Assembly: GCA_001606155.1 (NCBI GenBank)
Contig: LODT01000035.1
Coordinates: 734,658-798,657 of the forward strand
Reading direction: 5' to 3'
Source: Tieghemostelium lacteum
Taxonomy: Eukaryota; Evosea; Eumycetozoa; Dictyosteliales; Raperosteliaceae
Length of the DNA stretch: 64,000 nucleotides
The notes below the pieces were generated by a model. It was given only the letters and a program-made list of their open reading frames with translations, was not told the DNA's origin and did no database searches. Below are positions 43,381-64,000 of this stretch, one piece after another (positions within the stretch are counted from its first letter, which is position 1; every line of letters starts with the position of its first letter). A program made the position numbers and the translations under genes.

Positions 43381-46300
43381 TTACTTATTTATTTTTCTTT
43401 TCATTTTTGGATAAATGAAATTAAATAGTAGGATTATTAGTGAGGATAGGAAAGTATAGATGGTTACTGTTATACCAATTATAGAGGCATTAATCTTTAA
43501 GTTGGAATATTGATAGTCAACTAAGAGGATTAGAATCATTAGCAGAGAGTTAACTAAACTGTTGCAATGATTTTTTAAATGGTTTTTGTATGGTCTAATA
43601 TAGAATTCTGCAACCAATATTATAAATTGTGTAGTTTTCAGCAGTATAGAATTCAGTTGTTGATTATAAAGACATGTTACTACTATAAAACTGAAGATAA
43701 ATGTCTTTAAATAGTGAATTGAGTCCCACCAAAGTAATCCATTTCTATAAGGTAACAATTGCAGCATTTTATAGAACTTGGATTGTTTACTACCTTTTTT
43801 CAACGTGTACGATATCAAACCAATTGTAAAAGGAAGAAATAGGAATATGATAATTGGAAATATTACCAATAAAGTTGTTATCAGATTTTTGTAATCTGAG
43901 TATACCACATCCATATCAATTGATAAATAGTGTGTGTCTAATTGTGGAATATTTTTGTAAATTAAAAGTGATATCATATTGAATATCAATGGTGGATAGA
44001 GTAGCATGAATAAACTCCAACATTGGTACATCATGCGGTAGTTGATCTGAGGTGAAGATAGTCTTGTTAATCGATGGTATCGGTGTTTCAATTTATGAAA
44101 TGAAATGGTAATACAATAGGTAACCAAAACCATTAATAGCGAAATAAATGTTTTGGATAGTACTGTGATGGATAGTGGACAATAGTCATATATAATGTCT
44201 ATTGAAAATCTAAATACAGGTAGTATATATAGATGTGATGTAGAGAAGAAAATAATGGAGCAGAATTGCAGATAGGTTATGATACGGCCAAAAGCTGAGT
44301 AGAATGATGAGTATCTAAGTGGTAGACAAAATACTATAATCATCAATACCAAGAGCAATAGATAATAGAAAAAATAGACCTCTCTATTTTTGAAATTTTG
44401 GCAACAGTATATACCGGATTTTGGTACAAAATTTCCAAAATCATCAACACACGAACCACATAAAACACCAGTTGTGTGGTTTTTTATACATTGGTTTTCA
44501 CCAAGACATTTGTTTGGTGCACATTGGTAGATGGCTGTGATTTCATTGACCATATAGTAATTGGGTTTGGTGTAGATTAAAGAATTCATGCACACTAGAT
44601 TTTCATTACACCTGATGCATTTTTTATGTTCTTCAGCATAGGCTTGGTTAATTGGACAGTAGATACAATCAAAGTTCCATAGATAGGTATTGTTACTACA
44701 CTGTGGTGTATAGTATGCAAAATCGGTTAATTGGAAGTTTACAGAATGGGATTGTGCAGATATGGAATATAGTATATTAGCATCTGATTTCAGAGGCATA
44801 TTTACATATCCCACGCCATTCGATAAAAAACTAGTAAATGTGAATGATAGTGAGTTATTCTGATTTTTTACCGAAAATTGAACTTCTACATTACTTAGGG
44901 TAACAATTATATTACGAAATATATCTCTGAATGTGTAGGTGAATTTTAGTTGAAATATATCAGTGTTGGTGAATGTTACTGAAATGTTATTGGGGTGTGA
45001 TGCAAAGTCGTCACCGTAGAGTGCTTGGTTATACTGTAGTGCATCCAATGGGTTTTGATTGTAATATGCAAGAGGGAACTGAAAATATGCAACCCCACCT
45101 CCACCATTCGGAGCAGAGTTTCCATAAAAGATGTTTTCTCCAATGGTTAAAAGTGTAGTGTTTCCGTCTGGTTTAGAGGAAACTAGAATGCAACCTCCAT
45201 TGGTTTGTGATGTATTGTTTAGGAATTTACTAGAATTGATAATCAATGAATTTGGTTTAATACTATCCATAAATACACATCCACCAGATTCTGCGCTGTT
45301 TTCTTTTATAAGACATTCAGAGATTGAAATTGAGCTTCTTGAACCAATTTGTATTGTGAAAAGTCCACCTTTGTTAGAAATGATCTGAGTAGAGTTCAAA
45401 TAGACTGATGACCCACCAGTTGCCTCTATAATACCATTTTGTAGAGCAATATTGTTTTTTACAATAGTGTTATAGAAAGTAACATCCGATTTTATAAACT
45501 TCCAGAATGGATTGTGCATGTAGTTACCTTCAAATCGCGAGTTGGTAATCAGTACTTTGGAATTCTGAAATAGGTTTATATCTTCCTGTATATGCAATGG
45601 ATTGGGTTGGAAAGTATTATCTAAAATAAGAAGATTATTAAAGATAATAGATTGACTATTATTGTTGGTAATGAAGAATAGTTTACTCTGGAAACTAGTG
45701 TGATGAGAAATACTATCGGAATCAGAATAGAAATTAGAGTATATAAGATGAACTAAATATCCATTATTGGTATGAGATAATATTGTAGTATTGGTACTGT
45801 TGATATCATTAAATAGTCCATGGAAAACAGTACCAGTATTATCATCTAAAGTGGTATGATATGTAGACATGTTGCAACGTAGCATATTAAATGTTATATC
45901 CAAAAAATTTTGAGAAATTAGGATTTGATCAGTTGTAAACACAGATTCTTTACAGTATACCAAAGCGCTATTTTCAAGTGTATAAACAAATGTTTTTTTA
46001 AATGTGGAGGTGGTCAGAGTTAATATAGTGAATTCCACATAAAATAGAATGGAATTCATGTAGGTATTCTCCATTACCATACCATTAATTATACCAGTAC
46101 TGAATAACATTGTAGCAAATGACAAAGCACCAGTTAAAGTACAGTTTTCAACTCGAATTTGGTCCATTTCTAATTCAGATTTTACCATTTTCAAAAACTG
46201 CTCACAGTAAATTTCTACAAATGAACTGTTTTTAATGGAAAGTGTTGATGCTGACTGAATTTCAAATACAGAGAATTGAGTAAATATAGATAAAAACTCA

Positions 46301-47822
46301 GTTGATTCTATATGGATTGTAGATTGACTAGCTTGTATAATACCAGAACAACCATTTAATGTACTATTGTATACCTCTACTGATGAATTGAAGAGATTAA
46401 CTATATTGGTATGAGCCAACATATTATTAGCTGAAATAGTACATTGGTATATTTTAAGTTGTGAATTGGTTATTAGTTGAAATAGATCTACCATCATTGT
46501 AGATTCTAATGTGGTATTCCTAATTGTCAACTCGGTATTATGCAAAAGTGATGGTTTTAAATCTAATAGTTCACTATCAGTTATAGTTATGAAGACACCT
46601 GCAGAGTCATTTTGTATCTCGATAAATGAATACCCATCAAAACTATTAAAAAAAAATTTACAGCTGTGATACTGTTATTTCTGATTTTACAGTAGAAGGT
46701 GTTGGATAGGATACTAGATTCTTTAGAAATGTTAGTGAACCTTGTCCAATGTTTATGCCATTCATTTGGATATTCGACTGAAGAAATAGAATAAATGTAG
46801 TGGTTGTAAGATAGTCGGTTTGAATATTGTGCAACATAATAGTAGAATTGTAGCTATTGAATATTGCATATTTTGCAGAACATTTGGTAATGAAACTGTG
46901 TGATAATGAGAAATTGGAATTTCTAATAGAGAATAGATTCTGATCTGAAGCCCATCCACTAATGATTATATTTTTCATTGTAAAGTTGGTATTTGTAATC
47001 TCAAATACCGATGACTGAAATATAATGTTACTGTACTTTAGCCAGATGGTACTGATCTCTACTATATCATCCCAACTAGATGCTGTAGTAACGAATGTAT
47101 CTACTATATCTCCACTAGTAATTGATAACTGATTGTTACCATTAAATGTTTTGAAATTTGATCGCATAATAGTACTGTTATAGATAATGAGTTGTGAATG
47201 ATTATAAATGTCAACATTTAACTGAATGGTAGAGTTTCCCATAATCTCTATTCCTGATCTATCAGCAATTATAAATTTACCAAGAGAGGTTGTGAAAATT
47301 GATTTATCAAAAATCAATTTCGATGCACCATCAAGTGTTGATTCGTCAGTTGATGTTGTAATATTCATATTGATAATTGTCAATACTGATGAGTTTTCAA
47401 ACTTCATTAAAAACCCACTAATTTGTGGTTTTATATCTATAGTTGCACTACTACTAAATGTTATATTACATTGTATTGAACACATTATATTGTAAAATGA
47501 ACTTTGATTATAGTTTCCTTCATCAAAGTACACTGTAATAGGTGGTGAAACTTGACGTGTCATATAATAAAGTATTTCGATTACTTTATCAAACGTCTTG
47601 TAAGGGAATTTAGAAGTTCCATTATTATTGTCATTCCCATTACTCTCAGATATATATATGGTTTCTATAAAAGTATAGTTTTGGTATTAGCATGTTAATT
47701 ATATTTTACCACCCCCACAAACCACACTAATTCCACATTTTTAAAAACATACCATTACTGTCTAAAATGACGACATTGATTGATGAAAACAATAGAATTA
47801 TAACAATAATCAAAAATTTCAT
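43381..47822 (-). CDS. Beta-helix (pectin-lyase-like) multi-pass membrane protein
   Basis: Exon 1 (47822-47753) encodes a signal peptide (MKFLIIVIILLFSSINV). Exon 2 (47664-46662) starts ETIYISESNGNDNNNGT, the usual opening of dictyostelid parallel beta-helix proteins. Exon 3 (46642-43381) continues the Asn/Ser/Thr-rich beta-helix repeats (I.NS.F..N), a Cys-rich module (CAPNKCLGENQC...GVLCGSC), and about seven membrane helices from VYFFYYLLLLVLMIIVF to the C terminus KRKINK. The joined length is 1444 aa. The exon 2/3 junction is problematic: the frame-keeping join uses a 19-nt gap with GT...AG ends, while a 55-nt intron to ATCGAG is an alternative. Such proteins are thought to be cell-surface proteins of unknown role. 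Confidence 0.82.
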
Positions 47823-48183: not shown

Positions 48184-48865
48184 ATGAAACAAATTATAAT
48201 ATTAGCTCTCATACTTTTATCAATTACAGGTAATGTTTAATTTTTTTATTTTTTTTTATTATTTTGTTATTACCTGGTTTAGACAATATGTCCTGGTCGG
48301 ACCAGGAAAATTATAACAAATAAATTTTAAAAGGAATTTGTATTATTTATAATTGAGTTGGATTATTAATATTTTATTGTATGATATAGTATGTGTAAAT
48401 AGTTTAGGATCAACATCACATGAATCTAGCTCAACAGCTGCAGTAAATACATCATCAGAAGCAACCAATGCAACCGGTTGTGCAAAATATACATCATGTT
48501 CAGATTGCGCAGCTGAGAATCATTGTGTGTGGTGTGAAGGTGATTCTATTTGTTCAGATGGTACTTTTTATGGTTCTAAACCATTGAGTACATGTAAGGA
48601 TTTCAGATGGAGACAATGTAAGATTGAAGGTAGATATACATTGATTATTGCCGCTGGTATTATTGCAGTTATTCTATTCTTCTTCTTTTGCATTTGCTGT
48701 TGTTGCTGTTGCCGTAGAAGAGACTCTCACGAACATAAATATTACTCTATTCAAAACAGTGAAGATGAAAATAGCCATCTCATTTCAAAGACTCCAAAAA
48801 CTGATGCCAGAAGAGAAGAACTCTATCGTAAATGGGGTATTAAATCAAAGAACACAAGCTATTAA
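48184..48865 (+). CDS. PSI-domain type I membrane protein (PTTG1IP-like)
   Basis: Exon 1 (48184-48229) encodes the signal peptide (MKQIIILALILLSIT). After a 160-nt intron, exon 2 (48390-48865) completes 173 aa. A Ser/Thr-rich spacer precedes a PSI-like Cys module: CAKYTSCSDCAAENHCVWCEGDSIC...C...C. A single helix follows (TLIIAAGIIAVILFFFFCICC), then a run of six Cys and RRR, a likely palmitoylation site. The cytosolic tail ends RREELYRKWGIKSKN, resembling the C terminus of PTTG1IP (PTTG-binding factor). Size, topology and both end motifs agree with that family. Function in amoebae is unknown. Confidence 0.85.
48291..48307. repeat. GC-rich 8-bp inverted repeat inside an intron
   Basis: TCCTGGTC, one G, then GACCAGGA: a perfect hairpin in an otherwise A/T-rich 160-nt intron of the PSI-domain gene. 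This intron is about twice as long as most in the window. Confidence 0.7.
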
Positions 48866-49093: not shown

Positions 49094-50779
49094 TTATTGT
49101 GTAGTAGGAGTTGTTGTAGTTGGTGGTACAGTTGGAGTTGTAGTTGATGGAACTGGTTGAACAGTTTGTACTGGAGGTGGTTGATATACACGTGGTGGAT
49201 TTGGTTTGAATTTATATTTATTCATAAAGGCCATAAATTGACCTGGAATTTCACGAAGAGTCTCAGAGGCTAAGGCTTCAAAGTTTGGTAATGATTGGAA
49301 TGGTACAAATTGTACAATATCACGTTCAGCATATTGACCTTTACTGGATTTCAATAGACCATTATCAGCATCTAATTCTTTCATTGCAGTAAATGAAGCA
49401 TTACCAACACCAATAATGACAATGGATAGAGGTAATCCAGATGCTTCTACAATGGCATCAATGGTATTTTCCATATCCAAAATCTCACCATCAGTTATAA
49501 TCAAAAGAATAGTGTATTTTTGTACAACTTGATTTTGTGGAACTGATGCTTGTGAGGCAGCCTCTCTAATCAATGGTGCAAAGTAAGTTGGACCTGACAA
49601 TGTAATACCTCCAATATTTCTATAGTAAGCGTCTAGGATACCTTCAACACCACGTGCAAATACCTGTTGTGGACCTGCGAATGGGAAGCAATGAGAGACT
49701 TGAGAGGATCCTGGATATACACCACCGAATCCATATACAGGGTAGAACCCATCAAAGTCATAAGGTGCTAATACATTACCAATAGAGACAATTGCTTTGG
49801 CATATTGGTTTGGATTGGTTGGGTGTTGGTAATGTAGTGAGGTTGGACTTGTTACCTCACCGTTGGAACCTGTGCAATCTATACCAACAATCAAAGATAT
49901 TTCACAACCACCTGCAATGTATTCCAAAAAGTTATATTCTCTAACTAATTCAGATTCAAAAACTTTGATTTTACCACTACCTTTGTAGTTTTTGGGGTCT
50001 TTTTGTTGTTTTTTTTCATTTACTAATTTATAAAACATTCCTTTAACTAAAAGATCGTTGGTATTGGTTTGGAAAGCACCAATGAAATCGTGTTTACCTA
50101 CTGAATCCCAATCATAGAATTCAAATCTTATAGGGGCAGTCATATCACCACCACAGATATCTTCCAATTTGAATACACATTCATTGAATACTGGGTCTAA
50201 GGTTTGTTTGTGGACTTCTGATGTATAGACTAATGCAAATCCAGCTGCATTATTAGTCTTTCTAAACATTTTGAAATAAGGATCACTCTTTCCAAACAGA
50301 TCTTTCTTGTCGAGCCCTTCACCTCCAAGTCTCATTTTGAAATGTTGGTTAGTAACCATTAGTTGTTCGGCAGAGACTCTCACCATACCTGCTGGTTTTT
50401 GGTGTTTATCTAGGATTTGTACTTCAGCAGTTTGACCAGCTTTTGATAAAATATTACCAAGAGTTACATTGGCAATACCAATCTCTTCTTGACCTTTACT
50501 ATCATCTAAATTATGATCATTATCAACATCCAACACTGTGATACGTAGTTTTTGAATTTGTTCAAAGTAGTAATCAACCTTGATTGGTGTTTGGAAAGTT
50601 GGAGACAATGTATTCTTTTGTCTTTCAGTTCTTCCAATTTTATCCCAACCCTTGTTTATCAAGTTCTCTGCATGAACAATAATCATTGGATCTGACTTGG
50701 AAAGTACATCCATATCTCTTAGTTTAGTGCATGAAAATCTAAGTTCAATCTTAGATGTTGGTTGTTTCAGAGTTGCCAT
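49094..50779 (-). CDS. Copine (two C2 domains plus von Willebrand A-type copine domain)
   Basis: Single exon, 561 aa, the usual copine length. C2A at about 10-130 has KLRDMDVLSKSDP and DVDNDHNLDD, the calcium-binding Asp loops. C2B at about 150-275 has LDKKDLFGKSDP and FYDWDSVGKHD. The vWA-like copine domain spans about 300-520 with the MIDAS-type motif GIDCTGSNG (DxTxSN) and the copine block YGFGGVYPGSSQVSHCFPF. The tail is Pro/Thr/Val-rich. Copines bind phospholipid in a calcium-dependent way and recruit partners to membranes. In dictyostelids they affect cytokinesis, contractile vacuoles and development. The start is supported by the immediate C2A strand (KIELRFSCTKL). Confidence 0.97.
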   Translation of the reverse strand: MATLKQPTSKIELRFSCTKLRDMDVLSKSDPMIIVHAENLINKGWDKIGRTERQKNTLSPTFQTPIKVDYYFEQIQKLRITVLDVDNDHNLDDSKGQEEIGIANVTLGNILSKAGQTAEVQILDKHQKPAGMVRVSAEQLMVTNQHFKMRLGGEGLDKKDLFGKSDPYFKMFRKTNNAAGFALVYTSEVHKQTLDPVFNECVFKLEDICGGDMTAPIRFEFYDWDSVGKHDFIGAFQTNTNDLLVKGMFYKLVNEKKQQKDPKNYKGSGKIKVFESELVREYNFLEYIAGGCEISLIVGIDCTGSNGEVTSPTSLHYQHPTNPNQYAKAIVSIGNVLAPYDFDGFYPVYGFGGVYPGSSQVSHCFPFAGPQQVFARGVEGILDAYYRNIGGITLSGPTYFAPLIREAASQASVPQNQVVQKYTILLIITDGEILDMENTIDAIVEASGLPLSIVIIGVGNASFTAMKELDADNGLLKSSKGQYAERDIVQFVPFQSLPNFEALASETLREIPGQFMAFMNKYKFKPNPPRVYQPPPVQTVQPVPSTTTPTVPPTTTTPTTQ

Positions 50780-51064
50780 TCTTTACAATTAATGAAATAA
50801 AAAAAAAAAAAAGTGTATAAAAACAATCAAAAATAAATATCTGAAAGGTTGATCGGAAAAATGTTTTTGTGACTTATTTGCAAATCTTTGTGAAAAGTCT
50901 TAAAAAAAAAAATTAACTTTAAGTGAGCTTTAGTTTGTTTAATATAAATGTAATTGAAAGAGTAATTGTTTTTATTTTTATTTAAATTCCAAAGATATTT
51001 TAAAATATCTGATCTTTCGAAATTGTTTAGGATAAAATTTTTTTTTTGGACATTCAAAATCATA

Positions 51065-54000
51065 ATGAAAACCTTTATAGTTTTATTTTTATCTTTTATA
51101 TGTTTAATAAGTTTGTATTAGTAAGGTTGTTTAATTATGGATTAGAGTATTAAGATTGATATATATTCAATAGAAGCTGATTATAGAATATATGATAGAA
51201 CAAATCCATTTGATAAAGATGTTTATGGAATTAGTACTGGTTGTTCAGTAGTTTATATATGGAGAGTTGAAAGACTTGATCCAGAACCTAATTTTACTCC
51301 AACAGATGTGATATCTGTTAGCTATAATAGTGGAGGTACATCAAACGTTTATCTTGATGGTGATAATTGGATTGGAAGTGCTGTGGTAAATGTACCTGTC
51401 AATCTTAGTGTAACTTTAAATGTTTCATTAAATGGTGTGGATATAGCATCATTGGGAAACTTTAATTGTCAACCTATACCATATCCACCATCAACTGTAC
51501 CACAACAAACACCAACAATCTACAATTACCAATCTAATTACTATGAAATTATTGAATTTAATTTCTCAAAATCAACTCCAACCTCAATTCAACTATCGAC
51601 AACTAATTTTATAGGGACTCTAGATTGGATTACATTCGGTAAAGGTTTCATCAATTACAATTTAGGAAAAACCAACACACTTACCACCATATCCAGTAAA
51701 ATTTCAGTCCCAGTTGGAAATCCATTTAATACTGATGAAGTTGCCTTAACACAAGTTCCATCATTTCCCATTTCTTGTAAGTTTAAACTCTCTCACATAT
51801 TGTGATAGTATTTAATTAATACTAACTATAGTATAGCTAATGTAAATCTGGATTACACTGTATTACTATACCCAGAACCATCAGCACCTAATAAGGGACT
51901 AGTAAATCTTTATATTATCATAAAATATCCAAGGAATTACACAGGATACTATTCATTAACTAGTGGTTTGGAAAATTCATACTATACAGTAAAACAACCA
52001 AATATTTTGGAATTTGCTGGTGATAGTGCACATAGAGCAATTCTTTATGGTTTCAATTACGATACTTCCAATAATGATGATGACATTACCTTTAAACTTA
52101 TAAAATACCAATCATCATCTTTTGTTCAAGATCAAATAATATCATATACAGTTAATAGTAAGTTTTAAAAGATACCCAATATTAATTTGATAATCAAATT
52201 CTAATATTAAATACTATGATAGCAAATAGAGTATTATCATACACTACAACTTCTTTTACTGAATATACAACTCCTATTAACATACAAGAGTATGAAACAA
52301 CTATGAGTGGTTTTGATCAACCTTTTTCCATATCTTTTGCATTCAATCTATATCATTATAATTTCATATGGAGGGCACCTTATGGTATAATTAAAATGAC
52401 AGGCAATACATTTGAATTTTCTGCACCATATCTACAAAATGTTTATATGGGTGCTTTAGTCGGACCTGACATTGTTAAAAATATTGGATCTGTTCAAGGT
52501 TAGTACATTCTCTACAAATACTACCAAGTGCATCTTTTATTAATTTATTTTTAATTCATTTAGATTTTGTACCACCTACTATTACATCCCTTTCATTTAG
52601 ACCTGTTAGATTGGATAATAGATTATTGACAATTGTCTCATTAAGAGTCTTGGATAGCTCAAGTGGTGTATACCAAATTTTAATTAATAATGGTGAATTT
52701 GTATTGGATAGCAGTAATTTAGAAGATGGATCTATCTATAATGGAACTTATGAAAAATTGATAGATTACACCAATTCGAATTATTATCAGGCTCCTATTT
52801 TCCAAGTTTCAGATGTAGCTGGTAATGTTGCAACGATAACAAATTTTATTGAAATGACACCAATTCCATTGTTTCCAAATATTATACCAAACACATTAGG
52901 TATGTCTTTTATATAGTTATCTGATAAATTAATATTAATATAATTCAATATAAAATATCCTATAGAGTATCGTATGAACCATGTAATGACATTCTTCGAA
53001 TTTAGGGACATAGTAATGGATCTTTCAACCTCATCAAAGTCTAACCAATTAAAGGTAAACTTTACCTATGTTGATCCAAATTTTATTGTAAAGTTGACAA
53101 TATTTGATGGAATACAAAGAGATCCATTTTTAGGATACTGGGATTACAATTTGAAACTATTTATTGTAGATTTCAATTTACCACCCTACCCACCCTCAGG
53201 TTATGTAGATTTCAAAGTTGAATTTCCAGCTCTAACCTATCATAGTTACATGTTAGATTACTATGGTTTTTCAAATCAAAAACTATTATTACAAAGTACA
53301 AGTAAGTTTAGTAAATACTATACCAACATTCAATACAAGATTACTAAAATTATATTGTATTTTTATATAGCAACTGATCGTTTACCACCTATGGCTGTAT
53401 CCATTACAGCAGTACCTTCTAATAACCCAATAATTTATAGTGATACTTACATCGGATGGGATATAGTAATTTCAGATTCTGTTTCAGGTATTAAGAGTGT
53501 AAAGGCATCTGCGGTTTCTAATATAAACAGACAACCAATTAATGCTACAGTTGTGTATGATACATTCCAAGATACTGTATCAGTTAGATTAAGTTTTCAA
53601 ATTATAGCCTCAACATTTGTGTCACAAATTTTCACTCTAAACTATTTAGAATTTACAGATAACAATGGTATGGTTAGTTTCTATGAATATAACCATTTGA
53701 ACGAACTTGGGCCCACATCAGTCAGTGATAATACATTCACTATTTCACCTTTAATGCAAATGTTCAATGCACTTGATAATTTGACCATTTCAGCTACTAG
53801 TACATATGCAGGTACTGATTTAGTACCACCTTTTTTAACTTACTATCATCAAAATGCAGTTTTGGTTGATGTCATGTCTGATGAAAGAACCATTATTATT
53901 ACATTCAATGTATCTGATACCATGTCTATTTCTAATACAATAAACCCATACTGTTATGCTCATGGTCTATTGTTCAGTTACACTGGTGTTCAAGCATCAC

Positions 54001-55520
54001 TTCAATCCAGCAGTGGTAATAATGCCTCTTTCCAATGTGCTCTCAGACTTCCATATGGCTTTGGTTATCCAGGTCAGAAAATAACATTTTCAATACACGG
54101 TTATGCTGATGATTGGGGTAGAATAGGTGGTGTTTCTTACAATGATATTAGTACAATCACATCTCAAGATGCCTCTGTAAATGTACAAGCAAATTTCACA
54201 AACCCATACCTAGATAAAATTACCTATAAACTATCACCTGATAAGAATAAGGTTAGCCTAACAATCTACGGTTACAGATTTGGTGTCACCGCTGGTGTTT
54301 TATCTGTCAATTTCAATAATGGAAATTCCAGTTCTCCATACTACACTCTTACCTCCAATGTATTATTAATTACAGAATACTTTAAACCATCGTCTAATAG
54401 GGCAATGGTAACTTACAAAAATCTTAATAATGGTGATTCGAATATATATCCATTACTCATCGATGGTCTTTTAACACCTCCACCAACTAACTTACCTGAT
54501 GTAGGGTGTGTTGGTGTACCTTTATGTGGAGGTCCTTCTAATGGTGTATGTACACAAAGAGGTTGCCAATGCATTAGTCCTTGGGTTGGAATAGATTGTC
54601 TCTCTCAAGTTGTTATAATATCTCCTCCAAACATTAACACATCCAATCCTGAAACTGGAAATAACTACACAACAACTCTTCCAAATGGAAAGGAAGTTCA
54701 ATTGAAAACATTAATTTCGATTTTATCTATAAACCAACTAAATCACGAGAATATGGTTGTGACTCGTCATGTACCCTCCACTTGGGTATATAGAAACACA
54801 ACATCACAGTTGAATGATTCAAATATTCAAGAATTCAACTACCAAGGTACCATCATCAATGGAAACATAACCACCAATGTAACAGTAATTGTACAATATT
54901 ATAAGAATCAACAAATCATTAAATTTGCTGATAAAAATATGACCATTCTACCATCATCATTGAAATATAGTATTGAAATATCACCATACTATTTCAACTC
55001 CTCTGTCAATTCTCTTCAATTGATAATGTCAGCAAGTATCCAATCCATCAGTGACGATTCATCATCATGTTCATATCAAGAATCTGGAACCACCATTGAC
55101 AATGAAGATTATGTTAAACTTCAAATTGATGAACATTCGCTCTATGCAAAATTCATAAAATTTGGGTTGATAGACAACAGAACTCGTGAAATCAATAACA
55201 AGATTATCAATTCTGCAGATGGTAATCAAACCGCCACATCCAATATCCAACTAATTGGTATTCAAATTCCACATTTTGTAAAAAATGCTATTTTAGATCC
55301 TGATTTTTCATTGTTACTCGACACCAAACCAGCATCAGACAAAGAAAATGCACTCTGTGAATCCAAAGAAACTAGAGGATTGACAAAAGCTCAATTAGCA
55401 GGTATTATCATTGCTGCAACTTGTGGTGGAATAATTCTAATTGGTGCATTATTTTACACTTTGTATCGAAATAATTTGACCTTTAAGATTAAAATTCAAT
55501 CGGTAATTAAATTAAAATAA
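51065..55520 (+). CDS. ComC-type IPT/TIG-EGF transmembrane surface protein, copy 1 of 3
   Basis: Seven exons: 51065-51110, 51174-51776, 51837-52157, 52223-52498, 52564-52899, 52966-53301 and 53371-55520, giving 1355 aa. Every intron is phase 1. Exon 1 is the signal peptide (MKTFIVLFLSFICLI). Internal exons hold immunoglobulin-like beta-sandwich modules. The last exon holds an IPT/TIG-like region, one EGF-like domain (CVGVPLCGGPSNGVCTQRGC, about 1017-1050), a large conserved beta domain typical of ComC proteins, and one membrane helix (about 1308-1335) with a short basic cytosolic tail. The first intron uses a weak GTTTGT donor. ComC and Tgr-type relatives act in cell-cell contact during multicellular development. 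Whether this copy does so is inference. Confidence 0.88.
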
Positions 55521-55653
55521 ATTCGAAAACTTCCTGCCATTTTTTTTAAATCAATATCTAAAATATCTAATGAATTCCGCTAAAAAAGAGATTTCTTTTT
55601 CTTTTTTAATACCATTGGGTTGTTAATAACAAACCTATAAATACAGTTGTAAT

Positions 55654-58600
55654 ATGAAACTACTATATATAAATATATTGATATTTATTTTTATAAATCT
55701 CAATTGTATGTTGAATGATTATAATTTTGATTGATCATATCCCAAATATTAATATTTTATCACTTTTAGATTCTTATATAATTAATAGAGATATAAATTA
55801 TGAAACTCTTAATTCATATGGTACACCAGCATGTGCTCATGAGTATTATATAACAGTGACTAGGGAAGCAGGAGATGCAGCCATTACATTATTCCAGATT
55901 TTTAATTCAAATGCATCTTATTATTTGGCTCCACAGTTAGAGGATCCTGATATTTATATAGAGTTGATATATATTACTTTTACATCCAATTCCAAAGGTA
56001 CATTTAATATCATAGTTAATAGTATTACAATAGGAACTGCACCTTATGAATGTCTAGCTCTACCTTACCCTATTCAACAATTAAATGTACCCTCATTCAC
56101 ACCGTTTCAGGATAGATTTATAACCTATATTGAACTTAATGTCACAAAACCAATACCTTTCATATCAAGTGCAAGTTTCTATTCCATTAATCTACCATAT
56201 ACATGCAGTATATCAGCAATGAATGTTAGTACCTATGCTTTCCTATGTACACTTAAAAATCTAAATTCAGTAGTATCATTTCAAAATTTAGATATTAAAC
56301 TCTATAATCTATTAGAAACGACACTATTCACAACAATTTCAATTCCTACATTTGTGCAACCTCTAGGTAAATATATTATTATAACAGCAGAAATTTAGAA
56401 TCTATAAAGTACTAATTAAAAACTATGATGGTATAAATATTTAGATTTTAATCCAGATTTAGGATATCTAAATCAAACATTTTTTGATGATTTTTTATCT
56501 AAAGAATCAGAAAAAACTTATAACGTGTTTTATTTAAAGAATGTGAATACTAGTAGATACACATTGTTTTTGAATGGTGATATACCAGTATTAGAACACA
56601 CTGATTCAACTAATTATATTAAAAATGCATATAGTGTTGGTAATGCTCAAATGGTATCATTGGCTACTTATAGATTATATGGAGTAATTAATGGTTCAAC
56701 AACATTTAAATTACTAAATTTGAATGGAAATGTAGCTACTTCATCTCCAATTCTCTACCCAATTGCATTATATCCACCTACACTACCATCAATACTCCAA
56801 CAAGCTCCAATACCAACTGCCACATTTATCAGTGTACAATTAGATATCACTAAACCCAAGAAAGGAATATACATCAATCAATTAGGAACCTTTTATACTC
56901 AACCTATACTATTCGATTACCCCTACAATATCATCTCTGGTAACTCCAGTTCTCTAACTACTACCTCTATACTCTATAACAATGGTTTCAAATCTGACAT
57001 AAAAATTTTTAGTACAATGTTATATACCTCTGGATCTACAATAGGTAAGTTAATTAAATTATTCCAATCAATTTTCAATTTATAATCACTAACAAACAAT
57101 TTTTGTATTATAGACTCAGCTGCCCCAACTCTTAAAAATGTTCAATTAATTGGAATTGGCCAAATGAAAGTGTTAGTTAGAGTGACTGCATCTGATCAAA
57201 TATCTGGAATCTTTAAGATTGTAATTAACGAGGTATTTGAATTAAGTACCAATGATCTAGCTAGTGGTAGTGTACTAGATGGAACTTTTGAAAAAATTAT
57301 GGATTTGACAAAGTATTTGAATTCACTAGATCTCTATATAATTAAGGTATATGACTTTGTAGGAAATATAGACTCTAGTGCTGCTTTTAACATTGATTAT
57401 AATTGCTCATTCCCATACATTTCTTATTCACTTGCAGGTAAGATTAAATATTTATATTTTAAAATATTACATAGCCACTAACTTTCATCTTTATATAGGA
57501 TCAGCATCTTCTAAATCAATTCTAAAACCTAAAATTACAGGTTTTAAATTTTCAAATAAGAATGTTCAGGTTTCATCAACAGCAGTATCAAATTCACTTT
57601 TTATAAATTTCACAAATGCAGATCCATCTGTATTGGTTGCTTTAAGAGTATTTGATGGCACTAAAAATGAATTTTGGGGTGGATGGGATAAAGGTGCAAA
57701 AATGTATAAAATTGATTTTGTGATTCAACCTAGACCAGCACCTGGATTCATGGATTTTGCAATTACCTATCCACGTTGGGTATATTATAGTCATGAATTA
57801 GATTACTATTCATTCAGTGACCAAAAATTATATATTAATTCACAAAGTAAGGTTATAAAGTAATTTTATTAAAATGATATTGTGTACTAACTAAATTTTT
57901 TTATGTAAATAGTAACTGATAGAATGCCACCTTTAATTAGTCAATTATACTCCTATATTTCAGGTGGTAATGTTACTTGGGTTATAGCAGTTGAAGAACA
58001 ACATAATGGTCTTAAGAATGCTTCTTTTGTTATTGTTGGTACAGTTGATGTAAAACCATATGTATTCACCTATACATTTGATAGCTTTCCAGTAACTCAA
58101 ATGTTTTTATTGGAAATTCCTCAGCCATTTGAATGTATAACACAAACTTATAGATTAACTGAAATTTCATTAACTGATTCCGCTGGTTTAAAAAGTTATT
58201 ATCAAAACAATCAACTTGATGTTACATCACCTGTACCTGTAAGTCCTCTTCTAAAAGTATTTTCCAATTATACTCAACTTGGTATCCAATTGACATGTAG
58301 TGGATCTTCAGATGTAACACCACCACACGTAACAGGTTATACAGTTATATCTCCTGTAGGACCTATCATTAATTTGGCATCCACTACCAGGGAGTTTGTT
58401 ATCAATTTTGCGGTAACAGATAGTCAAAATAATTTATCAAAAAGACATCTTCCATATTGTATTTTATATGGAACTATATTTGATCAATTAATGGTTGAGT
58501 CTACTGTGGTGCCAATAAACTACACAAACCAAGCCAACTACACTTGTTATTTCAATTTACCAGTTGGATATGGGTATTATGGTGCAGAGAAATATAGTCT

Positions 58601-60014
58601 GGTTTTCACTATTCATGGGTACTCAGATATCATTGGAAATATTGGTGGTTCATCTTATTTGACCTTGACCAGCATAGGAAATCCAAGAGTAGCTGTTGAA
58701 TATAATTTAAATCCAATAATTGAAAGTCACTCTCCTATGACTTTAGAAGGAGGGCATTTGACTTTGTATGGAAGAAACTTTGTTTTTGGGAATTATGTAT
58801 CTGTTATTGTATCCTATCCACTCAAAAGTCAAGAACTAGCTCCTTCATTCCAATCTGGTATTGTTTTGGCAGTACCTATTGATCCCTATCAGTCACTGTA
58901 TAATGTAACTGTTTTGGTTGATAATAAGACTTCAAATACTATACAAATTCAAATTGGACAAACTCCAACATCTACTATTATACCTGTAAAATGTGCTGGT
59001 GTACCTGAATGTGGAGGACCATCGAATGGTGAATGCACTTCAAATGGATGTGTTTGTAAATCACCTTGGATTGGAAATGATTGTCAATCTCAAGTTGTTA
59101 CAATAGATCCAACTATTAACACAACCAATCCTGAAACTGGAAATAACTATAACACAACTCTTCCAAACGGAAGAGAAGTTCAATTGAAAACACTCATTTC
59201 AATTCAATCATTAAGACAACTGAAAGCAACTGGTGAGGAAGTTGTAAATCATCCACTCTACACTTGGATATACAGTAACACAACATCACAATTGAATGAT
59301 TCAAATATTCAAGAATTCACTTATCAAACCAATATCACCAATGGAAATCTAATCACCAATGTTTCAGTAATTGTTCAATACTATAAGAATCAACAAACCA
59401 TTGATTTTGCAAATCAGAAAATCAATATTCTTCCATCATCAATGAAATATAGAATTGAAATATCACCTTATTATTTCAACTCTTCCATCAACACTCTTCA
59501 ATTGGTAATGTCAGCAGGTATTCTATCAAACAATGACCATTCATCATCATGTTCATATCAAGAATCTGGAACAACGATAGACAATGAAGATTATATTAAA
59601 CTTCAAATTGATGAACATTCGCTCTATGCAAAATTCATAAAGATTGGTTTGGTTGATTATCGAGTTCAAAGTATCAGAAATGAATTGATTCAAATCAATA
59701 ACACTCAATCTACAGTTTCAAGCAACCAGTTAATAGGAATTCATATTCCACATTTTGATATGAATGTTGTCTTAGATCCTGATTTTTCATTGTTAGTTGA
59801 CACCAGACCAGCATCTGACAAGGATAATGCACTCTGTGAATCCAATGAAAGTAAAGGATTGACTAAAGCTCAATTAGCAGGTATTATCGTTGGAGTAACT
59901 TGTGGTGGTCTATTACTCATTGGTGCTCTAGTCTATATACTCTATCGTAAGAATATAATGTTCAGAGTACAAGTATTAAAATTAAAGCCAATGAAAAATA
60001 AAATAAATATTTAA
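55654..60014 (+). CDS. ComC-type IPT/TIG-EGF transmembrane surface protein, copy 2 of 3
   Basis: Six exons: 55654-55705, 55770-56366, 56445-57044, 57114-57437, 57499-57846 and 57913-60014, giving 1340 aa, all introns phase 1. It has the same order as copy 1: signal peptide (MKLLYINILIFIFINL), the Y-I-x-D...Y...C opening of module 1, beta-sandwich modules with ISGIFKIVIN and FWGGWDKGAKMYKIDF blocks, and a TDRMPP module. An EGF-like domain follows (CAGVPECGGPSNGECTSNGC, about 999-1031), then the ComC-type domain, a membrane helix near 1290-1318 and a basic tail. The third exon (600 nt) corresponds to two exons in copies 1 and 3, so one intron is missing here. It starts 134 bp after copy 1 stops. 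Confidence 0.9.
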
Positions 60015-60372
60015 AATATCTTATATAATTTTTTAACTTTTTGACCTTTTATTCAAGTGGATCCCAATTGCATGATTTCATGTCCGATTTTTTGAAGATA
60101 TATGTGCCCTTTTACAAAACAATCAAAAAAAACCTCGTAAAAAAAAAATCTATCAAACATGCAAATATTCAGAATCAGGATACCCAATATGATAGTGGAT
60201 TCCAGGTAAACCTAAATAAAAGTATCCTCATTTTCAAGAGAAAAGAGAGATGTTTTTAATTCCGAGCTTAACCATTAGTTTGTGGTTTTTAAAATTTAAC
60301 ATCTCATTCGCATATTCACTTTAAGTAACCTTTATTTATTTATATATAAATAATTTATTTGTATATATTAAA
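60015..60372. other. Spacer between ComC-type copies 2 and 3
   Basis: About 360 bp, longer than the 134-bp spacer between copies 1 and 2. A 72-codon open stretch at 60041-60259 has no features of a protein (Lys/Asn/Ser from A/T richness) and I do not call it. The copy 3 promoter must be in the last 150 bp, which is A/T-rich. Confidence 0.5.
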
Positions 60373-63300
60373 ATGAATCGAATTTTTATTTATTCTTTTA
60401 TTTTTGTTTTATATTTGAATTTTTCAAGTATGTCTTTCTAAAAAAAAACTTTAAATAGCAAAAGAGAACAGTTTAAACTAATTAAAATTATTATAGATTC
60501 ATATATATTTAAAGATAATACAGATTATCAGTATCTACCATATGGCTCATCGAATAGATGCCAATTTAAATATCATTTTTCTATAACTAAAGAGGCTACT
60601 GATGCTGATATTGTTTCAATTGAGGTGCCTGATCTTGCAAATAATTATGTAGTAAATTCTATAGTTAGAGAAAATCAAAATGGTGATACTGGTTATTGGA
60701 TTGGTGTAGTTACAATATCTGCTGAGTTTGATACTATTAATCCTGTTAATGTGTATATTAATTCTCAACCAACAATAATTGGAGCTCTAGTTTCTGATTG
60801 CGAACCTATTCCATTCCCATTTCAACAAAATAACACTGAATTATCATTTATTTATTCACAAGGATACTATATAGCTACAATTCAATTTACACTCACTAAG
60901 CCTATCATTTTTGGACCAAGTGACACATTCTACAGTTTCAATAGTCCTTATGCTTGTAGTATTTCACCAATATCCATTAGTGCCTATTCTGTAATCTGCC
61001 AAGTTTCCTCTATTGACACCTCACTTACATCTTTCCCAAGTAATGTAATATTAACCATTAATGATGAAGCAAATTCTCAATTACCAGTTGTAGTTCAAAT
61101 TCCTACATTTATTAAAAGTATGTAATTAAAATGATATTATTCAGTTTTTTGGTTACTAACAATATTTGTTAATAGCTACCGCCGCCAATATGGATTCTAT
61201 CAGTGAATCTTGGTGTGATTTACAATCATCTAATGTTGTTACAAAGGGATGTTATATAACTCAAACAGTAGATAGAACCTATAACTTCTATCACACATTA
61301 ACTTGTAGTTATATTCCTCTTTTCAATAATAATCCAGTTAATATCTACAGAATAGCTTACAGTAACAGTGATGGTATTGTGTATTTGTATGCTAAAATAT
61401 ATACTCTCACTGATAATGGTAAAACTGATACTTATCAATACATCTCCACTAGAAATTTGAATATTGATCGTATTGGTTTAGGAAATAGTGCCAATATATT
61501 TATTCGTAAGTTAATTCCAAAATATAAATCATTATAACTTTTATTAATTTTATATATTATATATTACAGCAAACCCAGTTACACCTTCATTTTCAGCTGT
61601 AGCTTATAATGGAATAGATTTTGCATACGATATGCCTACAACAGCAACTAATTTTAAATCGCCAGTACCTGTCAAAAATTCTGTAATGTTTCAAGACTAT
61701 ACCAAAGATTATTTGTATCAGTATCCTTATAATATTATTGTATCAAGTTATGCACAAACCAGAGTTGACTCTATTGTAATTGGACTAAATTATGAATCTG
61801 ATGTAACTATTAATGGTGATACTATAACTCTAGGAAGTCTAGTTGGTATGTATTCAAAATATCTAAATTTTAGTAATCTATACTAATAATGTTTAATATG
61901 TAGATACCATACCACCAACAGTCACTAGTTTCGTAGCTACTCCAATTGGAGATATGAAAATTAAATTGGTAGTTCATGCAACCGATGCAGTATCAGGTGT
62001 ATTTAAAATTGTTTATAATTCTAAATTTACTATGGATATTTGTGATCTTTCTAGTGGAAACTTACAAAATGGTGTATTTGAAAAAGTTTGGGATACTAAA
62101 TACGCAGACTTACAGTTATTAAATAGTGGTCTGTTAGAGATTTACGATTTAAGAGGTAATAAGGCTACAATTGTAAATGCACTATATGCCTTTAGTCAAC
62201 CTTATCCATATGTTGCTCGTACTGCAACTACAGGTATGTTTATAAAATATCTAATATAGATGATTTAATGTAATATTAATTTTAGAATAACAGTAAATGT
62301 AGTATATGGTACTATTACCTATTTTGAATTTGACCAAACTTCAATGACAATAGGATCAACATCACAATCAAATATTTTATATGTTAACTTCAAAGAAACC
62401 AACAATGCTTCTCTAGTGAGATTTGAAATATTAGATGGTATAAATGATGTTTTCTGGGGTGCTTGGGATACACAACTACAAATGTATAAAATTAATTTTG
62501 TAGTCAGACCAAATCCAGTACCAGGTGTAATGGAATGGAAACTCACATATCTACCAAATGAATTCTATAATCATCAATTACCATTTTTTGGTTTTTCAAG
62601 TCAACAATTAACTCTATCATCTACTAGTAAGTATAAAAGATTATTTAAACTAGTGAACTTGTATTTACTTACACTTTATCTTAAAGATACTGATAGAATG
62701 CCACCTATTATAACTTATTTAATGCCATCAACTGCTGTGGAAAGTAACAGTTCAACCAACTATGCTGGATATGTCAATTGGAATATTACAGTTCAAGATC
62801 AATTCAATGGTATTAAAAGTATAAAATTATCAGTTTTAGCAGACTTTGATATGAAACCATATAACTTTAGTTATGTTTTAGATGATGCTACAACTGTGAA
62901 TAATTACAATTTTAAAATTGAAATTCCATTGCCAATTGGTTGTAGAACTCAAAAATATACAATCAACTATATTGAAATTACAGATAAACTAGGTCTCACT
63001 AGTTTCTTTGAGAATCAACATCTTGAAATGGAATCCACCTTCAATCAACCTCTTGCACCATGGTACAAGATTTTAAATACAAGTCTCCGTTCTATTACCT
63101 ATACTTGTAGTTCAACAACTAGTGATGTAACAGCACCTGTTTTCAATATAATTTCCTATTCAACTGAACTTTTAGATGTTGGTGGTGTTAATAGAAAGTT
63201 TGATATAACATTCGTTGTCATTGATGCTGTAAGTCCTATTTCTATGAGACATTTACCATTTTGTTATGCTCATGGTCCACTATTCCAAGAGTACAAAGTA

Positions 63301-64000
63301 GAGGCTACACTAGTTTCAAATAATCCTACAACCAATGGTCGATTCAAATGTTCTATGGATATACCCTATGGATTTGCCTATCCATCTGATTCTATAAGAT
63401 TCAGTATTCATGGTTATGCAGATATCTATTCAAACATTGGTGGTATCAGTTATTATGATCTAGACGCTAAAAGTCTTAAAAACAACCTTCCATTGAATTT
63501 CTCTAGAGGTATACCAATTATTAGAGAAACTTCACCTATATCACTTCCAGTTGGAATTGTAACTCTATATGGATACCAATTTGCCAATGGTAGTACTGTA
63601 CAAGTTGATTACGTCGGTGGAACACATTCAACATTGACACCAACCTATATCTCACCTTCTATGGTTGTGTTCTCTGGTGTATCACCCAACCAGGTTAGCT
63701 TTGGTATATCAGTTTTCTCAAATTCAATTCAATCCAATATCTATCAAGTTACACTATCACCGTTAACTACATCTCAACCACCTATCACTCAATCTCAAAG
63801 TGAAACCATTCCAAACTGTCCTGGAACACCTGCTTGTGGAGGCACTTCCAATGGTATATGCAATAGTGATGGAAGTTGCAAATGCATAGATCCATGGGCA
63901 GGCTTCGACTGTCTCTCTCAAAAGGTTATAGTCAAACCAGTAATTGATCCAACTAATCCAGACACTGGAATTGATTATAATACAACTCTTCCAGATGGTG
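60373..64000 (+). CDS. ComC-type IPT/TIG-EGF transmembrane surface protein, copy 3 of 3 (3' end beyond window)
   Basis: Exons 60373-60427, 60497-61117, 61176-61505, 61570-61845, 61904-62233, 62294-62626 and 62687 to the window end give 1086 codons so far, all introns phase 1. The acceptor of the fifth intron must be the second AG (AATAACAG at 62293) because the first one would give a stop. The signal peptide is MNRIFIYSFIFVLYLNFS. Modules match copies 1 and 2: DAVSGVFKIVYN, FWGAWDTQLQMYKINF, TDRMPP, FAYPSDSIRFSIHGYAD, and an EGF-like domain (CPGTPACGGTSNGICNSDGSC) near residue 1025. The ComC-type domain has just begun at the edge. The exon pattern equals that of copy 1. Confidence 0.9.

What the first reader, a model, noticed from the sequence alone, without database searches (positions are those of the whole stretch)
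51065..64000. Tandem array of three ComC-type surface receptors
Three large paralogues lie head to tail with short spacers. Each has a signal peptide, beta-sandwich modules, IPT/TIG-like region and EGF-like domain; the two complete copies also show the ComC-type domain and one membrane helix, which lie beyond the window in copy 3. The N-terminal modules differ strongly between copies while the EGF and C-terminal part are alike. In dictyostelids, clustered IPT/TIG surface proteins (TgrB/TgrC) carry kin recognition. A diversified tandem array of this type could be a related adhesion or self-recognition locus, but that is inference.
Basis: partly seen in the sequence, partly recalled or inferred. 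Interest (0 to 1): 0.75.

Follow-up and report, generated by a model that had tools for sequence, protein, structure and literature searches.

The report
Receptor array with recombined shared tail
Three neighbouring genes in a social amoeba encode large cell-surface proteins whose outer parts have drifted far apart, while the membrane-side quarter of two of them appears to have been kept alike by DNA copying between the genes, a variable-head, shared-tail design resembling animal cell-identity receptors.

Summary
The array is real. The genome is Tieghemostelium lacteum. Copies 1-3 (51065-55520, 55654-60014, 60373-64845) have matching exon borders and the same domain order: DUF7743, DUF7035, DUF7034, a cryptic TIG-like module, DUF7949 (EGF-like), ComC_SSD, one membrane helix. 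The array ends 845 bp past the window. It is one of 19 clusters among 101 DUF7035 loci in this genome. It is not a Tgr array: no Pfam TIG match, no divergent gene pair. The EGF-to-stop block has 63/91 fourfold sites identical against 36/98 upstream; copy 3 shows no such step. Over six arrays, 16 of 20 paralogue pairs have a silent-site change point, 13 of them within 37 residues of the EGF; the four pairs without one involve copy 3 or one other unconverted gene. Gene conversion of a shared membrane-proximal block, leaving diverse ectodomains, is the best explanation. A recognition role is inference; self-recognition is untested. Paralogue dN/dS gives no reliable sign of positive selection.

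The parts
51065..55520 (+). Copy 1: seven-exon gene, 1355 aa; exons 51065-51110, 51174-51776, 51837-52157, 52223-52498, 52564-52899, 52966-53301, 53371-55520
   Evidence: Gene model; Pfam; all six introns phase 1
55654..60014 (+). Copy 2: six-exon gene, 1340 aa; exons 55654-55705, 55770-56366, 56445-57044, 57114-57437, 57499-57846, 57913-60014
   Evidence: Gene model; Pfam; lacks one intron that copies 1 and 3 have
60373..64000 (+). Copy 3 (runs to 64845 outside the window): seven-exon gene, 1367 aa; exons 60373-60427, 60497-61117, 61176-61505, 61570-61845, 61904-62233, 62294-62626, 62687-64845
   Evidence: Gene model with sequence beyond the window; Pfam
54507..55520 (+). Copy 1 membrane-proximal block: EGF-like (DUF7949), ComC_SSD, TM helix, 22-aa tail; homogenised with copy 2
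   Evidence: blastn match to copy 2 starts at the first EGF cysteine, 78% DNA identity
58992..60014 (+). Copy 2 membrane-proximal block, homogenised with copy 1
   Evidence: C-block tree joins copies 1+2 at 100/100
63817..64000 (+). Start of copy 3 membrane-proximal block (to 64845), not homogenised with copies 1 or 2
   Evidence: dS 1.67 to both copies; no change point, 694/1000 and 813/1000 permutations as high
51174..53301 (+). Copy 1 variable N-terminal modules (exons 2-6), the fifth exon being DUF7743
   Evidence: 22-23% aa identity to the other copies in segment N, silent sites saturated; Pfam
55770..57846 (+). Copy 2 variable N-terminal modules (exons 2-5)
60497..62626 (+). Copy 3 variable N-terminal modules (exons 2-6); exon 2 is predicted as two beta-sandwiches
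   Evidence: structure model pLDDT 71.8, generic Ig-like matches

Best explanation
This is a tandem array of three single-pass surface proteins from a large dictyostelid family, with a variable-head, shared-tail organisation. Shown: the N-terminal ectodomain is a string of modules of roughly 100 aa on phase-1 exons (exon 2, about 200 aa, is predicted as two); ectodomains within an array are mostly saturated at silent sites, whereas in copies 1 and 2 the block from the EGF to the stop codon (EGF, ComC_SSD, helix, tail) is much younger. Inferred mechanism: after old tandem duplications, ectopic gene conversion kept copying this ~1 kb block between neighbours, with tracts limited upstream by the highly diverged TIG-like module and linker and downstream by unconserved 3' flank. 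Inferred function: a repertoire of adhesion or recognition receptors in which the ectodomain sets what is bound, while the shared EGF-SSD stalk keeps a common anchor or cis-pairing surface. The partner (kin cell, matrix or bacterial prey) is not determined.
For: Silent-site change points in 16 of 20 within-array pairs (15 with 0/1000 permutations as high, one with 8/1000); 13 of the 16 lie within 37 aa of the EGF, the other three at -99 to -155. The 20 pairs come from six arrays and share genes, so they are not independent; each of the six arrays has at least one pair with a step. Fisher test on fourfold sites below 0.0025 in 15 of 20. Block dS is 0.13-0.25 in the converted pairs of three arrays and 0.59 in copies 1-2, against 0.96 or more in all three upstream segments of the same pairs; in array C34 it is 0.31-0.49, against 0.51-0.92 in the middle part and 1.18-1.75 further up. 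Internal controls: copy 3 and C14:352k share the array and the block but are not homogenised (block dS 1.45-1.67), which argues against constraint on silent sites. The 100 nt of 3' flank are no more alike than background (0.57-0.66 in 7 pairs, median 0.61 over 378 pairs), against simple recent duplication; the stop of L021, in one of these 7 pairs, is doubtful. C-block tree: copies 1+2 100/100 with copy 3 outside; upstream tree: 1, 2, 3 form one clade 95/94. Protein-level repeat on database proteins: 10 of 253 T. lacteum pairs have a C block of 60% identity or more, both members on the same contig in all 10, middle part 29-68%. Surface topology and domains.
Against: GC at third positions is not raised in the 14 converted genes (mean change +0.011, p 0.14) and is raised in the 14 others (+0.036, p 0.007; these include the weakly homogenised L012 and L013), so the GC-biased conversion signature used for fugu protocadherins is absent. 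The upstream tree does not reject copies 1+2 as sisters (AU p 0.19), so incongruence for this array is not significant by topology. L012-L013 is weak (block dS 0.90; Fisher p 0.024). In D. firmibasis P0026/P0028 the step lies about 480 aa upstream of the EGF, and P0030/P0032 show only a mild step, so the EGF border is not universal. Only 41 of 101 loci were modelled, 28 of them usable. Models outside the window are rough: those of L019, L021 and L037 probably carry false last exons. No expression, binding or population data bear on function.
Confidence: 0.72

Rival explanations
1. The C-terminal block is alike only because purifying selection is stronger there; no recombination took place.
For: The block is the more conserved part also between arrays (48-54% aa against 23-30% for the middle part in the closest between-array pairs listed).
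Against: Silent sites differ: block dS 0.13-0.59 against 0.96 or more upstream in the converted pairs of four arrays, and 0.31-0.49 against 0.51-1.75 in C34. Copy 3 and C14:352k, with the same block in the same arrays, are saturated there, and the change-point scan used only codons with unchanged amino acids.
Confidence: 0.07
2. Recent tandem duplicates in which the ectodomains were replaced by cassettes from other, distant family members (head swapping) rather than tails being homogenised.
For: It would give the same step at the EGF border; exons 2-6 are phase 1-1 and shuffle-compatible (44 of 46 introns counted in family models in phase 1).
Against: Middle-part sequences of each array group together in the tree, e.g. 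copies 1-3 at 95/94 and the other five arrays at 99-100/98-100. The breakpoint lies inside the last exon, not at an intron. 3' flanks are not homogenised. Sixty unfetched loci could still hide donors.
Confidence: 0.13
3. Self- or kin-recognition locus functionally equivalent to tgrB1/tgrC1 in a species that lacks those genes.
For: Surface proteins with diverged heads in tandem arrays; tgrB1 limited to group 4 and tgrC1 to D. discoideum (PMC4931340 table passages); mostly lineage-specific clades in T. lacteum.
Against: No polymorphism or expression data. tgrB1/C1 recombination sites fall partly inside the binding regions (12 and 10 GARD sites, several in those regions; PMC12324515 section read), whereas here the ectodomain is what recombination leaves alone. 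No reliable dN/dS above 1 between paralogues.
Confidence: 0.15
4. Prey or matrix receptors: the repertoire binds bacterial or substrate ligands during feeding, not kin.
For: A family of about 100 loci with old ectodomain diversity and no sign of positive selection fits a ligand repertoire at least as well as a polymorphic self tag; [quoted passage not shown]
Against: No expression or binding data; no lectin-type domain found by Pfam.
Confidence: 0.3

Closest known systems
DUF7034/DUF7035/ComC_SSD 'EGF-like domain-containing protein' family of dictyostelids (e.g. DDB_G0290059, DLAC_08574)
   Same: Shared DUF7035, DUF7034, DUF7949 and ComC_SSD domains and similar length; 29% and 35% identity over 98-99% of copy 3 residues 420-1367 for these two.
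   Different: The window genes are members; in the tree the array has no orthologue among the other species sampled. DDB_G0290059 carries no precomputed DUF7743. The listings showed me no paper on the function of these genes.
Tgr (TIG) family, TgrB1/TgrC1
   Same: Single-pass surface proteins with Ig-like modules in dictyostelids; clustered, lineage-specific.
   Different: No Pfam TIG match, one cryptic TIG-like module instead of repeats, head-to-tail same-strand array, recombination placed at the membrane-proximal block rather than in the binding region.
ComC of D. discoideum
   Same: EGF plus the supersandwich domain named after ComC (PF22933 above cut-off).
   Different: PMC4931340 lists comC as limited to group 4 (passage); no ComC sequence was compared here.
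Clustered protocadherins of fishes (fugu)
   Same: Tandem adhesion-type genes with divergent 5' ectodomains and a 3', membrane-proximal region homogenised by gene conversion (PMC1852091, passages read).
   Different: Different domains and lineage; no constant exons; no rise of GC3 in converted parts.

Membership tests
Dictyostelid DUF7035/ComC_SSD surface family | DUF7743-DUF7035-DUF7034-DUF7949-ComC_SSD domains above curated cut-offs | tested here: met
   Five domains over cut-off in each of the three proteins
Dictyostelid DUF7035/ComC_SSD surface family | Signal peptide, one C-terminal membrane helix, short tail | tested here: met
   the signal-peptide peak of copy 3 is below 1.6 by hydropathy
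Tgr family | Characteristic TIG repeats | tested here: not met
   No PF01833 match in any of the three proteins nor in the array region of the genome scan, which scored 150 of 314 candidates; a single TIG-like module by profile only
Tgr family | tgrB1/tgrC1 organisation: paired diverging genes sharing a promoter | tested here: not met
   All three genes on the + strand, spacers 133 and 358 bp
Tgr family | Falls in the sequence clade of TgrB/TgrC | not tested
   No TgrB1/TgrC1 sequence was at hand; no Tgr name appears among the (partly cut) names shown for 43 hits of copy 3
Tgr-like allorecognition system | High polymorphism among isolates and matching-allele binding | not testable with these tools
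   One genome only; no population or binding data
ComC orthologue | Orthology to comC | not tested
   Only the domain name is shared; comC reported as limited to group 4
Protocadherin-type regional homogenisation (works like) | High silent-site identity limited to the membrane-proximal part of tandem paralogues | tested here: met
   copies 1-2 and four other arrays (a fifth, C2:197k, is weak)
Protocadherin-type regional homogenisation (works like) | Raised GC3 in converted regions | tested here: not met
   converted genes +0.011 (p 0.14), other genes +0.036 (p 0.007)

The most novel reading that the evidence does not exclude
T. lacteum carries an independently evolved, protocadherin-like receptor repertoire: dozens of surface genes whose ectodomain barcodes are preserved and varied while each array's EGF-SSD-membrane block is kept interchangeable by recurrent gene conversion, so that array members can pair in cis through the shared block and combine their heads. 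It could be a cell-identity or social-recognition system in a lineage without tgrB1/tgrC1 orthologues.
Probability: 0.15. Interest if true: 0.8.

Novelty: new variant of a known kind. Interest (0 to 1): 0.5.

Why it matters
The characterised dictyostelid allorecognition system rests on one gene pair, tgrB1/tgrC1, reported as limited to group 4 or to D. discoideum (passages). A family of about 100 related loci in another dictyostelid, in which recombination homogenises the membrane-proximal block but spares the ectodomain, gives concrete candidate loci for how other social amoebae recognise kin or prey. It is also a protist parallel to regional gene conversion in vertebrate protocadherin clusters. 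The step at the EGF border makes a testable claim: the shared block should do something that array members have in common, such as cis-pairing or sorting, and the heads should set specificity.

Tried and rejected
Positive selection in the N-terminal modules: not supported. dS of segment N is 1.18-1.75 in all 20 pairs, so the test has little power; in one of the least diverged pairs (L037-L038 of array C34) dN/dS is 0.24-0.33 in N, pre, middle and C segments alike; the two dN-above-dS values come from saturated segments. cDNA-mediated 3' conversion: considered because the block is 3'-terminal and intron-free; not supported, since the 3' flank is not homogenised. GC-biased conversion: not seen. 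Recent whole-gene duplication: rejected by the diverged upstream silent sites. Assembly collapse: unlikely, since copies 1 and 2 differ by 22% in the block.
Full report
What is there. The window lies on contig C30 (734658-798657) of a 23.3 Mb genome. The database protein of copy 3 sits on a 1536112-base contig, the length of C30, and its nearest relatives are named Tieghemostelium lacteum, several of them on contigs whose lengths equal those of C2 and C31 of this genome. Spliced models give three genes of 1355, 1340 and 1367 aa at 51065-55520, 55654-60014 and 60373-64845, with one stop each. Introns are 58-78 bp, all 17 in phase 1, and copies 1 and 3 share all six positions; copy 2 lacks one. 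In other family models introns near these positions are also in phase 1 (44 of 46 counted, window genes included; these models are rough). Pfam places DUF7743, DUF7035, DUF7034, DUF7949 (with the EGF-like cysteine pattern) and ComC_SSD over the cut-off in every copy; DUF7743 of copy 1 nearly fills its fifth exon. Between DUF7034 and the EGF lies a module that a 28-gene profile matches to TIG (93%; positive control 97.8%, negative 0.5%), although the profile of the three window genes alone reaches only 13%. One membrane helix and a tail of 22-28 aa follow. The array ends with copy 3: no further DUF7035 locus lies near it on C30, and the next ORFs look unlike it.

Context. The genome holds 101 DUF7035 matches and at least 150 ComC_SSD matches (150 of 159 candidates scored). 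85 of 101 DUF7035 loci have an SSD within 2.5 kb downstream. 55 of 101 lie in 19 clusters of 2-5 genes, all genes on one strand in 18 of the 19. So the array is a typical cluster of a large family. In a tree with 15 proteins of five other named dictyostelid species and one D. cf. discoideum, T. lacteum rows form mostly their own clades, and copies 1-3 have no orthologue among the rows sampled (a quick tree with long branches).

The mosaic. I could fetch 36 further regions of 96 wanted, which gave 38 models; with the window, 41. 28 had a recognisable EGF and more than 250 aa after it; 13 were dropped. Six arrays gave 20 within-array pairs, which share genes and so are not independent; I counted L021, 23 kb from L020, with its cluster. 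The block from EGF to stop is 86-92% identical in three arrays (leaving out C14:352k, at 55-56%) while the middle part (DUF7035-DUF7034-TIG-like) is 31-55% and the N-terminal part 18-33%. For copies 1-2 dS is 0.59 in the block and 1.27-1.88 upstream; for copies 1-3 and 2-3 the block is at 1.67. Fourfold sites differ between block and upstream at p below 0.0025 in 15 of 20 pairs. A change-point scan on codons with unchanged amino acid found a step in 16 of 20 pairs, 13 within 37 aa of the first EGF cysteine (copies 1-2 at +23) and three at -99 to -155, all in array C34; the four pairs without a step are exactly those with copy 3 or C14:352k. In the blastn comparison of 12 pairs, 10 of them homogenised, 5 of the 10 begin within 40 bp of the EGF start, two near -425 and three run further up; matches end within about 90 bp of the stop, save for L019 and L037, whose models run on past it, probably falsely. 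The 3' flank is not alike. The C-block tree joins copies 1+2 (100/100) without copy 3; the middle-part tree joins all three (95/94) with copies 2+3 weakly together, though copies 1+2 as sisters are not rejected (AU p 0.19). At protein level, 10 of 253 pairs among 23 database proteins of T. lacteum have a block of 60% identity or more, both members on the same contig in all 10; eight of the 10 lie on two contigs of which I had fetched at most one gene, the other two on the contig of C2 and so perhaps the same genes as above. In D. firmibasis one pair shows a step much further upstream and one pair only a mild one.

How it most likely works. Shown: topology, modules, the mosaic. Inferred: neighbouring genes exchange the well-conserved last kilobase by ectopic gene conversion, while the diverged ectodomains no longer recombine. 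The result is a set of different heads on a shared membrane-proximal block within an array. By analogy with protocadherins, whose homogenised membrane-proximal domain serves cis contacts (recalled, not tested), the EGF-SSD block may be a common pairing or sorting surface. What the heads bind is unknown. Old ectodomain divergence without a reliable sign of positive selection fits a ligand or prey repertoire at least as well as a kin tag.

Against the reading. GC3 is not raised in converted genes. Gene models outside the window are rough at both ends. Function rests on family features and topology only.

Compared with what is known. The proteins belong to a dictyostelid family present in public databases under domain names of unknown function, so the genes as such are not new. 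They fail two defining features of the Tgr family. Regional conversion of membrane-proximal segments is known in fish protocadherins (PMC1852091, passages). I saw no report of it for this family in the searches named under Tried and rejected. tgrB1/C1 recombine in part inside the binding regions (PMC12324515, sections read), a different placement. Placing T. lacteum in dictyostelid group 3 is recalled, not from a call.

Noticed in passing
60252-60550: The database protein of copy 3 (P0001, 1358 aa) begins at another ATG near 60252 and lacks the hydrophobic N-terminus of my model; the exon at 60373-60427 supplies one.
   Followed up: partly
43381-47686 (-): Two long adjoining ORFs, probably one gene: an Asn/Ser/Thr-rich extracellular-looking part and several hydrophobic stretches at the C end; no Pfam match.
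   Followed up: no
48353-48865 (+): Small protein with a hydrophobic stretch and a PSI-like domain just below the curated cut-off (22.9 against 23.1 bits).
   Followed up: no
49094-50782 (-): Copine gene (C2 plus copine domains) directly upstream of the array.
   Followed up: no
L014, L015, L025, L034, L035, L045: A second class of DUF7035 gene, most models about 1100 aa, that ends soon after DUF7035; 16 of the 101 DUF7035 loci have no scored SSD within 2.5 kb downstream.
   Followed up: no
L021 (C2:1144786-1150827): A lone family gene 23 kb from its cluster still shares a homogenised C block with it (dS 0.18-0.25), so conversion may act over that distance.
   Followed up: partly
G000 whole genome: Some ORFs carry many Pfam TIG domains together with ComC_SSD (e.g. 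C30:458728-461853), a TIG-rich class apart from the array.
   Followed up: no
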